From NCBI GenBank assembly GCA_008933835.1, contig WBUG01000003.1:1-64000 (forward strand): 64,000 nucleotides of DNA. The letters run 5' to 3'. Shown here in pieces: positions 32,090 to 34,939 of the stretch. The first letter of the stretch is position 1. Each line of letters starts with the position of its first letter. A program made the translations under genes and the position numbers. The notes under the pieces are model-generated. The model did no database searches. It saw only the letters and a program-made list of their open reading frames with translations, and was not told where the DNA came from. This stretch comes from Bacteroidota bacterium (GTDB lineage: Bacteria > Bacteroidota > Ignavibacteria > UBA10030 > UBA8401).

Positions 32090-33949
32090 ATGAACACGAA
32101 CATCCATTTCCGGGACAAGAACCTCCACCCCGTCTGGGACAAGGTGCAGCGCGGCGAGCGGCTGACCCTGCAGGACGGACTCATCCTGTTCGCCTCGCCG
32201 GACGTCATCTCCATCGGTAAGATGGCGCACGCGGTACAGCGGATGAAGAGCGGCGACGCGGTCTACTACGTCGTCAATCAGAAGATCGAGCCGACGAACA
32301 TCTGCGTCCTCTCCTGCTCGTTTTGCGATTTCGCGGTGAAGCAGGGGTCCCCCGAAGCGTACGAAATGACCGTCGCCGACATTCTCGCCAAGCTGAACTC
32401 CGACGTGCACGAGGTGCACATCACCGGTGGTCTCCATCCGGACTGGCCGTGGGAGTACTACGTCGGCATGGTGCGCGACATCAAGAAGGCGTTCCCGCAG
32501 CTGGACGTGAAGGCGTTCACCGCGGTGGAGATCGACTTCTTCCACAAGAAGTTCAAGATGCCCATCGCCGAAGTGCTGCGTCAGCTCTACGACGCCGGTC
32601 TTCGCACGATGCCCGGCGGCGGCGCCGAGGTCTTCTCCGAACGGGTGCGGAAGCTCCTCTTCAACCAGAAGATCGGCGCGAAGACCTGGTTCGACGTCCA
32701 CACCACCGCTCACCGCATGGGCATCCCGTCCAACGCCACGCTCCTCTACGGCCACATCGAAACGTACGAGGAACGGGTCGGCCACATGCTCCGTCTCCGC
32801 GAGGCGCAGGACCAGACCGGCGGGTTCCTCTCCTTCATCCCGCTGGCGTTCCAGCCGGGCGATACGGGCATCAAACCGAAGAACGAGTTCACCTCCGCCA
32901 TCGAGGACCTGAAGACCATCGCCGTGTCGCGACTGATGCTCGACAACGTTCCGCACATCAAGGCGTACTGGGTGATGCTCACCGAAGAGGTCGCCTCGGT
33001 CGCATTGAACTTCGGGGCGGACGACATGGACGGCACCGTGGGGGGCGAGAAGATCGCGCACGACGCCGGAGCGGTCAGTCCCATGGCGATGGCCAAAGAG
33101 AAGCTCGTGAAGATCATCACCGACGCCGGGAAGATCCCGGTGGAACGCGACGTCTACTATAACGCCCTGAACGTCGACGCCGCCAACGTGATCGGCCAGA
33201 TCCCGTACCTAAACTCGGTCCCGTTCTACGCCCACTTCGAGCAGCGGCAGTTCAAGATGCTCCCCATCGCCCCGCGGCGCATGGGCGTGCTCGCACAGAA
33301 GGGACAGATCGACGCCGGCCTCTTCTCCCTGATGGACTACTTCGCGCAGGAAGAGTCCCTCGAAGCGGCCCGGTTCGGCATCGCGTCGCGCGATCAGGTG
33401 AAGAGCGTCATCCTGCTGACCAACGAGGGATGGCGCGGCCTGCATGGAAAGACCATCGGCATCATCGACGACACGGCCACCTCCGTGAAACTGCTGCAGG
33501 TGCTGTTGGAGAAGAAATACGGCGTCAAGGCGAACCTGGAACGGATGCACGCCGGAGTGAACGATTACTCGCGCTACGATGCCGTGATGCTCATCGGCGA
33601 TGCGGCGCTGCGGGCGGTGAAGGAGGGCGGAACCGGGTTCTACCTCTGTTACGACCTCGCCAAGGAATGGTATGACTGGCAGAAGATGCCATTCGTCTTC
33701 GCGGTATGGGCCTACCGCCGCACCCTCCCGCCGGAGCGGAAAGCGGAGCTGAACGAGCTGATCGACACGGCGCTGCAGCGAGGCGAAGCGGAGATCGAGA
33801 CGGTCGGCGCGGTGCACGGCCGGCGCATCCACCTCACACCCGAAGAATCGGCGGAGTTCCTGCAGGGATTCAATTACCGGCTCGGTGACCGGGAGCAAGA
33901 GGCGATGCGGCTGTTCAAAAAACTGATTGAAGAAGTGGAAGTTAGTTAG
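32090..33949 (+). CDS. mqnE-mqnA: MqnE-MqnA fusion: aminofutalosine synthase joined to chorismate dehydratase (619 aa)
   Basis: Residues 1 to about 365 are a radical SAM enzyme with the cluster motif C-x3-C-x2-C (Cys-72, 76, 79 in ICVLSCSFCDF), HITGGLHPDWPWEYY and PGGGAEVFSERVR, matching MqnE, which builds aminodeoxyfutalosine from the MqnA product and SAM. From about 368 (IGQIPYLNSVPFYAHFEQ) the sequence is a periplasmic-binding-fold domain like MqnA, which dehydrates chorismate to 3-enolpyruvylbenzoate (LAQKGQIDAGLFSLMDYF, GKTIGIIDDTATSVKLLQ, FVFAVWAYRR). The two catalyse consecutive steps, so the fusion could channel the intermediate. Reading frame is continuous across the junction. No MqnB or MqnD gene is in the window. 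Confidence 0.9.
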   Translation: MNTNIHFRDKNLHPVWDKVQRGERLTLQDGLILFASPDVISIGKMAHAVQRMKSGDAVYYVVNQKIEPTNICVLSCSFCDFAVKQGSPEAYEMTVADILAKLNSDVHEVHITGGLHPDWPWEYYVGMVRDIKKAFPQLDVKAFTAVEIDFFHKKFKMPIAEVLRQLYDAGLRTMPGGGAEVFSERVRKLLFNQKIGAKTWFDVHTTAHRMGIPSNATLLYGHIETYEERVGHMLRLREAQDQTGGFLSFIPLAFQPGDTGIKPKNEFTSAIEDLKTIAVSRLMLDNVPHIKAYWVMLTEEVASVALNFGADDMDGTVGGEKIAHDAGAVSPMAMAKEKLVKIITDAGKIPVERDVYYNALNVDAANVIGQIPYLNSVPFYAHFEQRQFKMLPIAPRRMGVLAQKGQIDAGLFSLMDYFAQEESLEAARFGIASRDQVKSVILLTNEGWRGLHGKTIGIIDDTATSVKLLQVLLEKKYGVKANLERMHAGVNDYSRYDAVMLIGDAALRAVKEGGTGFYLCYDLAKEWYDWQKMPFVFAVWAYRRTLPPERKAELNELIDTALQRGEAEIETVGAVHGRRIHLTPEESAEFLQGFNYRLGDREQEAMRLFKKLIEEVEVS

Positions 33950-33957
33950 TACCTTGC
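33927..33957 (+). promoter_or_regulatory. Internal promoter of the TIR-like gene (TTG-N20-TACCTTGC)
   Basis: TTG at 33927-33929, 20 bp, TACCTTGC at 33950-33957. The element straddles the mqnE-A stop codon (33947-33949) and leaves a leader of about 24 nt. Confidence 0.5.
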
Positions 33958-33984: not shown

Positions 33985-34884
33985 ATGGACCATCAGCTGC
34001 TGACGAAATTGCAGGAACTCATCCAGCAGGGCGAAAAGCTCGTGCCGGAGGGCGGATTGGAATTCTCCGGCTACAACGCCAAGATGCAGAGCCAATACCT
34101 CCTGTGGCGCAAGAACGGGCTCGACGTGCTGACCAAAGTGGGCGAGAAGGCGGCGGTCATGCGGGAAAAGGTCACCAAGGACGAGAACGGCGCGTACTTC
34201 TATCAGAACTCCGCCCAGCTCATCCTCGAGACGCTGAAGCAGGCCCTCCCCATCGTCGAAGCCGATGTGAAGAAGAACGGTCCGAAACCGGCACCGGCTC
34301 CCCCGCCGCCGCCCGCTCCGAAACCGGAACCGGCACCCGCACCGGCGCCGGCCCCGAAACCGGAACCGGCTCCCGCACCGAAGCCCGAGCCGAAGCCAGA
34401 ACCGGCCCCGGCCAAACCGGCGCCCGCTCCGAAACCGGAACAGCCGAAACCCGAAGCGCCGAAAGCCGCTCCGGCACCCGCCGCACCGGCGGCGTCGCAG
34501 AAGGAAGTGCTCATCATCTCCTCGTCGGAGACCGAGCTCCAGTCACAGCTCACCTCCTTCCTGAAGGAGATCAGCATCGAACCGGTGGTGTTCAAACGCG
34601 GTACGGCACAGGACGCCATCATCTCGTTCGTGGACCAGCATCCCGGCGTCCGCTATGCCTACTACCTCTTCAACGCCGAGGATGTCAACATTGCGATGTT
34701 CGAAATGGGATTCCTCATGGGCCGCGTCGGCAACCACAAGGTCGTCTGCGTCCATATGAAGGAGGACGCTCCGCCGAAGGGTCTCCCCGGCGTCAGCTAC
34801 AAAGAGATCGTCGTGAAGCTCGAGGAGATCAGCTTCGGACTCATCAAGGACCTGAAAGCGGCCGGATACTCCGTCTCCATCTGA
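33985..34884 (+). CDS. TIR-like (CAP12-type) domain protein with helical N-terminus and Pro-rich linker (299 aa)
   Basis: Three parts are visible. Residues 1-96 form an amphipathic helical domain (LLTKLQELIQQGEKLV, YLLWRKNGLDVLTKVG). Residues 99-172 are a Lys-Pro-Ala-Glu linker of KPEPAPAP repeats. Residues 173-299 resemble the predicted nucleotide-binding TIR-like family (PF10137): KEVLIISSSETELQSQL, AQDAIISFVDQHPGVRYA, then VNIAMFEMGFLMGRVGNHKV, with Asn and Glu-240 at the place of the family's NVxFELG catalytic motif. The end reads LIKDLKAAGYSVSI, as in that family. In defence systems such domains cleave NAD or bind cyclic nucleotides; here the function is unknown. The start is ATG 33985. 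Own promoter and terminator inside the menaquinone block. Confidence 0.72.
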   Translation: MDHQLLTKLQELIQQGEKLVPEGGLEFSGYNAKMQSQYLLWRKNGLDVLTKVGEKAAVMREKVTKDENGAYFYQNSAQLILETLKQALPIVEADVKKNGPKPAPAPPPPPAPKPEPAPAPAPAPKPEPAPAPKPEPKPEPAPAKPAPAPKPEQPKPEAPKAAPAPAAPAASQKEVLIISSSETELQSQLTSFLKEISIEPVVFKRGTAQDAIISFVDQHPGVRYAYYLFNAEDVNIAMFEMGFLMGRVGNHKVVCVHMKEDAPPKGLPGVSYKEIVVKLEEISFGLIKDLKAAGYSVSI

Positions 34885-34903: not shown

Positions 34904-34939
34904 CCTTGCCGGACGGCGGATCCGACGGCAAGGTTTTTT
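34904..34939 (+). terminator. Intrinsic terminator after the TIR-like gene
   Basis: Stem CCTTGCCG/CGGCAAGG (34904-34911 and 34926-34933) followed by TTTTTT, ending 9 nt before the mqnC start. It would separate mqnC from the upstream genes unless read-through occurs. Confidence 0.8.

What the first reader, a model, noticed from the sequence alone, without database searches (positions are those of the whole stretch)
33985..34884. TIR-like protein with Lys-Pro-Glu-Ala linker embedded in the menaquinone genes
The C-terminal 127 residues resemble the CAP12-type TIR-like family known from cyclic-nucleotide defence systems, with the Asn...Glu (VNIAMFEMG) motif kept. A helical N-domain and a ~75-residue KPEPAP linker are joined to it. 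The gene has its own promoter (33927-33957) straddling the mqnE-A stop and its own strong terminator (34904-34939), so it is a separate unit inserted between mqnE-A and mqnC. No cyclase or other defence gene is adjacent. It may be a stand-alone NAD-consuming or nucleotide-sensing effector, or a housekeeping derivative.
Basis: partly seen in the sequence, partly recalled or inferred. Interest (0 to 1): 0.8.

Follow-up and report, generated by a model that had tools for sequence, protein, structure and literature searches.

The report
Domesticated TIR-like core protein, probably not defence
A gene that looks at first like a bacterial anti-phage 'TIR' enzyme turns out to be an inherited core gene of two related bacterial families, kept under strong selection even where the vitamin-K genes around it have decayed, and with most known NAD-binding residues lost, so it is more likely a binding or scaffold protein than an immune NAD-destroying enzyme.

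Summary
The gene is real: a 299-residue ORF with a conserved 93-residue N-domain, a ~75-residue Pro/Ala/Lys/Glu linker and a PF10137 (CAP12/Pycsar TIR) domain above the Pfam cut-off. It does not behave like a defence gene or a recent insert. It occurs once per genome in 17/22 genomes of its family and 30/32 of a second family, and in 0/44 genomes of the order's other families. It lies between mqnE-A and mqnC wherever both were seen, with mostly operon-like gaps, and both domains are under strong purifying selection (dN/dS mostly 0.03-0.18). In seven genomes mqnC is absent or broken while this gene is kept; in one, mqnE-A and mqnC remnants flank it. So it does not need the Mqn enzymes. The TIR pocket is largely gone: Glu240 stays (22/24), but the equivalents of SfSTING Arg78, Asn80 and Asp110 are nearly all lost, and one genus lost the Glu while keeping the N-domain. 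Best reading: a TIR-like domain domesticated as a binding or scaffold protein; ligand and partner unknown. Replacement of the missing futalosine nucleosidase was tested and is disfavoured. All functional statements are inference; no usable structure model was obtained.

The parts
33985..34263 (+). N-terminal domain (residues 1-93), no known family; conserved GGxEFSGYNA..Q..YL.WRK
   Evidence: 18 invariant columns in 20 orthologs; no Pfam match and no significant PDB match; convincing matches only in two families
34264..34503 (+). Pro/Ala/Lys/Glu linker of variable length
   Evidence: direct reading; poorly conserved, dN/dS 0.12-0.57
34504..34881 (+). PF10137 (CAP12/Pycsar) TIR-like domain; Glu240 kept, R78/N80/D110 equivalents and the segment with RARQN lost
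   Evidence: pocket residues from PMC9402430
34904..34939 (+). intrinsic-terminator-like hairpin with T6 tail
   Evidence: fold; similar structures in L002, L005, L007; not listed by the consensus scan
32090..33949 (+). mqnE-mqnA fusion, upstream neighbour
   Evidence: TIGR03700 473.5 bits
34949..36043 (+). mqnC, downstream neighbour
   Evidence: TIGR03699 459.2 bits

Best explanation
It is a vertically inherited core protein of two related families, derived from the CAP12/Pycsar (PF10137) TIR-like lineage and domesticated for a cellular, probably non-immune role. Shown: conservation, synteny, purifying selection, loss of NAD-pocket residues, survival of the gene where the Mqn genes are lost or broken. 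Inferred: the conserved N-domain binds a partner; the TIR-like domain works as a ligand-binding or dimerising module (or a slow glycosidase on another nucleotide) instead of a NADase; the flexible linker tethers the two. The position in the menaquinone cluster is an old gene order and not proof of a step in that pathway.
For: One copy in 17/22 genomes of family f1 and 30/32 of f6 (the two f6 misses are 55% and 69% complete), 0/44 elsewhere in the order, none convincing in a 395-genome phylum sample. Distances track MqnC (rho 0.61 and 0.66, 0 of 2000 permutations each). dN/dS 0.03-0.18 in both domains outside genus g6, linker looser. Seven genomes carry the gene without intact mqnC: G445 has broken mqnC and an mqnE-A stub around an intact copy, G444 an mqnC remnant, G059 none; G036, G044, G056 and G464 show metG-gene-amidohydrolase-ubiE where relatives have Mqn genes in between. 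It stays constrained among three of these (dN/dS 0.05-0.08 where synonymous sites are not saturated). Pocket: R78 equivalent 0/24, N80 4/24, D110 1/24, whole RARQN segment absent. Genus g6 lost Glu240 yet keeps the N-domain and the flanking mqn genes.
Against: Glu240 is kept in 22/24, which is more than expected if catalysis were irrelevant. In f1 the gene is absent from G004, G008 and G014, which also lack mqnC, so a link to quinone metabolism or simple co-deletion remains possible. All ligand and partner statements are untested; structure models were poor. The alignment of canonical and own domains is at low identity.
Confidence: 0.6

Rival explanations
1. Active stand-alone NADase or nucleotide-sensing defence effector (PDC-S35/CAP12-like): infection or a signal oligomerises it and it degrades NAD+.
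For: PF10137 above cut-off; PADLOC candidate PDC-S35 profiles match the C-part at 4e-16, PycTIR at 3.2e-6; Glu240 kept in 22/24.
Against: Near-universal inheritance in two families and no convincing match elsewhere; fixed housekeeping locus; R78, N80, D110 and the loop segment lost; genus g6 lost the Glu; its N-domain shows no detectable relation to those of four canonical relatives (hhalign probability 1%).
Confidence: 0.12
2. It replaces the missing futalosine nucleosidase (MqnB/MTAN step), which lies between the MqnE and MqnC reactions; the TIR-like Glu would cleave the N-glycosidic bond of aminodeoxyfutalosine.
For: Gene order mqnE-A, gene, mqnC; no MqnB over cut-off in 60 genomes of the order; both PF01048 proteins of this genome are purine-nucleoside phosphorylases; 7 of 18 domains weakly hit nucleoside deoxyribosyltransferase-like PF15891 (best 0.0015).
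Against: 35 of 44 genomes of the other families have mqnC and no such gene, and those among the 60 searched have no MqnB either; seven genomes keep the gene without intact mqnC; genus g6 has mqn genes but no Glu.
Confidence: 0.05
3. Accessory or scaffold protein for quinone biosynthesis or respiration, acting with whichever pathway is present.
For: Located in the menaquinone cluster or at its remains; in three genomes without intact mqn genes a menA-type prenyltransferase sits directly beside it; ubiE is nearby in four others; f1 genome G004 lacks mqnC, a MenD hit over cut-off, any match to that menA-type protein, and the gene.
Against: Other families of the order run the same pathway without it; f1 genomes G008/G014 have MenD and a MenA-like protein but lack it; MenD over cut-off was not found in the four mqn-less f6 genomes tested, so their quinone supply is unclear; position alone is inherited gene order.
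Confidence: 0.2

Closest known systems
CAP12/Pycsar TIR family (PF10137), e.g. SfSTING TIR (Cap12)
   Same: Profile match above cut-off; all 18 domains tested hit it; FExGxxxGKxG block with the catalytic Glu
   Different: R78, N80, D110 equivalents and the segment with RARQN lost; no recognisable sensor domain, no adjacent cyclase; core, syntenic gene
PADLOC candidate PDC-S35
   Same: C-terminal match, E 4e-16
   Different: N-domain not detectably related to those of four canonical relatives; long linker; PDC-S35 is a defence candidate with no paper in the library searched
DUF4062 TIR-like NADases (Swarozyc, TEP1; PMC13174449)
   Same: A TIR-like domain; in TEP1 it sits in the vault, not in a bacterial defence system
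   Different: Different family, active NADases; membership not tested here
Amoeba TirB/C/D (PMC13142454)
   Same: CAP12/Pycsar-type TIR domains kept without bacterial sensor or operon; no NADase activity was seen for TirB and TirD
   Different: Horizontal transfer to a eukaryote; TirC is a potent NADase

Membership tests
PF10137 CAP12-PCTIR_TIR domain family | score above Pfam gathering cut-off | tested here: met
   32.7 bits vs 24.7; all 18 orthologous domains hit it
CAP12-type NADase | catalytic Glu (SfSTING E84) | tested here: met
   Glu240, 22/24 orthologs; Ala in genus g6
CAP12-type NADase | pocket residues R78, N80 and cross-dimer D110 | tested here: not met
   R78 place is a gap in 24/24; Asn at N80 place in 4/24 (not in the window's protein); Asp at D110 place in 1/24
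CAP12-type NADase | NAD+ hydrolysis | not testable with these tools
   needs biochemistry
CBASS/Pycsar effector | adjacent cyclase and nucleotide-sensing domain | tested here: not met
   adjacent genes are menaquinone genes; N-domain has no family match. Cyclases elsewhere in the genome were not searched
PDC-S35 candidate | match over the whole profile including its N-terminal part | tested here: not met
   best stretch covers profile 109-258 of 264 only; N-domain comparison with four canonical relatives gave probability 1%
Futalosine nucleosidase MqnB/MTAN | match to PF01048 / TIGR03664 | tested here: not met
   the protein matches neither
Futalosine nucleosidase by function | co-occurrence with mqnE/mqnC | tested here: not met
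   35 genomes with mqnC and without the gene; 7 with the gene and no intact mqnC

The most novel reading that the evidence does not exclude
An immune-type TIR-like domain was taken over, with a new N-domain, as a fixed core protein of two bacterial families and now senses or binds a nucleotide or quinone-linked ligand outside immunity, with its NAD pocket dismantled and its glutamate reused.
Probability: 0.35. Interest if true: 0.65.

Novelty: new variant of a known kind. Interest (0 to 1): 0.45.

Why it matters
Defence catalogues flag such genes from profile hits alone; here genomic behaviour and pocket residues argue for a domesticated core protein. It offers a test case for how bacterial immune-type TIR domains leave immunity, with natural intermediates: one genus without the Glu, and genomes in which the neighbouring operon is decaying around the gene.

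Tried and rejected
Nucleosidase replacement: suggested by gene order and absence of MqnB, disfavoured by phyletic pattern and genus g6. Recent insertion: rejected by synteny. N-domain identity: no Pfam match, no significant PDB match, no hhalign link to PDC-S35-type N-domains. The genome-contig scan gave one match to residues 78-174 only, mostly linker; the viral scan gave one partial match at a contig end.

Full report
What is there. Window 33985-34884 (+) encodes 299 residues: an N-domain (1-93), a Pro/Ala/Lys/Glu linker of about 75 residues, and a C-terminal domain that matches PF10137 (CAP12/Pycsar TIR) above the Pfam cut-off; all 18 orthologous domains tested match it too. PADLOC's candidate PDC-S35 profiles match the same C-part (4e-16) and PycTIR more weakly (3.2e-6). 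The N-domain has no Pfam match and, as a profile, no significant match in PDB sequences. Neighbours are an MqnP-like prenyltransferase, UbiX, the menaquinone decarboxylase TIGR03701, the MqnE-MqnA fusion, and MqnC.

Distribution. With the N-domain profile, the gene is in 17 of 22 genomes of the window's family (f1) and 30 of 32 of family f6, one per genome (two are split over contigs), and in none of 44 genomes of the other families of the order; a 395-genome sample of the phylum adds only one 27-residue match at E 0.0085. Of the five f1 misses, G016's contig ends at mqnC and G020 is 82% complete; G004, G008 and G014 are near-complete and also lack mqnC. The two f6 misses are 55% and 69% complete.

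Locus and inheritance. In the loci with mqn genes the order is mqnE-A, this gene, mqnC, with gaps of mostly tens of bases and small overlaps in some; the longest is 243. Operon membership is likely, but transcription was not measured. A hairpin with T6 follows the gene here and in three relatives, so mqnC may be partly insulated in that subgroup; no promoter was found by the sigma-70 scan. Protein distances correlate with those of MqnC (rho 0.61 for the N-domain, 0.66 for the TIR-like domain; 0 of 2000 permutations each). dN/dS is 0.03-0.18 in both domains for close pairs outside genus g6, linker 0.12-0.57; in genus g6 the C-domain is looser (0.31).

Natural experiments. The f6 gene order with full pathway is bamA-like, holB-like, metG, ubiA, ubiX, ubiD, mqnE-A, gene, mqnC, with an amidohydrolase, an MqnD-like protein and ubiE further on (bamA, holB, metG, amidohydrolase and MqnD named by eye from sequence, UbiE by NCBIfam). 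In G036, G044, G056 and G464 the mqn genes are gone and metG, gene, amidohydrolase, ubiE remain. In genus g18, G445 keeps a stub of mqnE-A and a broken mqnC (three pieces; in-frame stops) around an intact copy; G444 keeps an mqnC remnant; G059 keeps none. Among these three the gene remains constrained (dN/dS 0.05-0.08 where not saturated). The G056 copy is interrupted by a run of N in the assembly. G451 looked like an eighth case, but its contig ends inside the gene. The gene therefore does not depend on the Mqn enzymes. Whether it depends on quinones is open: three of the seven have a menA-type prenyltransferase next to it, the other four only distant homologs elsewhere, and MenD over cut-off was not found in the four mqn-less f6 genomes tested.

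Active site. In SfSTING the NAD pocket uses E84, R78, N80, S10, hydrophobic residues, and D110 from the dimer mate (PMC9402430). In an alignment with 15 PF10137-type proteins of the phylum, the own family keeps Glu (22/24) and the FExGxxxGKxG block, but lacks the segment with RARQN, has Asn at E-4 in only 4/24 and Asp at the D110 place in 1/24; the HGHD, HEQP and IIEK blocks of those relatives are also absent. SfSTING itself need not have those three blocks, so I do not count them as catalytic. Genus g6 has Ala for Glu. I infer that NADase activity is unlikely, not excluded.

Rejected idea with merit. The step between MqnE and MqnC needs a nucleosidase (established knowledge of the futalosine pathway). 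No MqnB over cut-off exists in 60 genomes, and in the genomes checked the PF01048 proteins are purine-nucleoside phosphorylases. A TIR-like glycosidase between the two genes was tempting, but 35 genomes of the other families have mqnC without the gene, seven have the gene without intact mqnC, and g6 has the pathway genes without the Glu.

Conclusion. By domain it belongs to PF10137; by function it is unproven. Most likely it is a domesticated core protein, a binding or scaffold module.

Noticed in passing
L068, L069, L071-L075 (between mqnE-A and mqnC in families f3-f5): The same intergenic place holds other small genes in relatives: ParE-type toxins in L068, L069, L072 and L073, a PIN-domain protein in L075, unidentified ORFs in L071 and L074. 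It may be a tolerant site for accessory genes.
   Followed up: partly
whole order (60 genomes searched): The futalosine pathway is present, but no MqnB over cut-off was found, and the PF01048 proteins checked are purine-nucleoside phosphorylases; which enzyme does the nucleosidase step is unexplained.
   Followed up: partly
L173, L174, L175, L176: Proteins with a PAS-like N-part joined to a MenA/UbiA-like prenyltransferase in f6 genomes that lack mqn genes; the PAS assignment is by eye.
   Followed up: no
L112:4874-5764, L169, L170: A menA-type prenyltransferase occupies the place of the lost mqn genes beside the TIR-like gene in three g18 genomes.
   Followed up: partly
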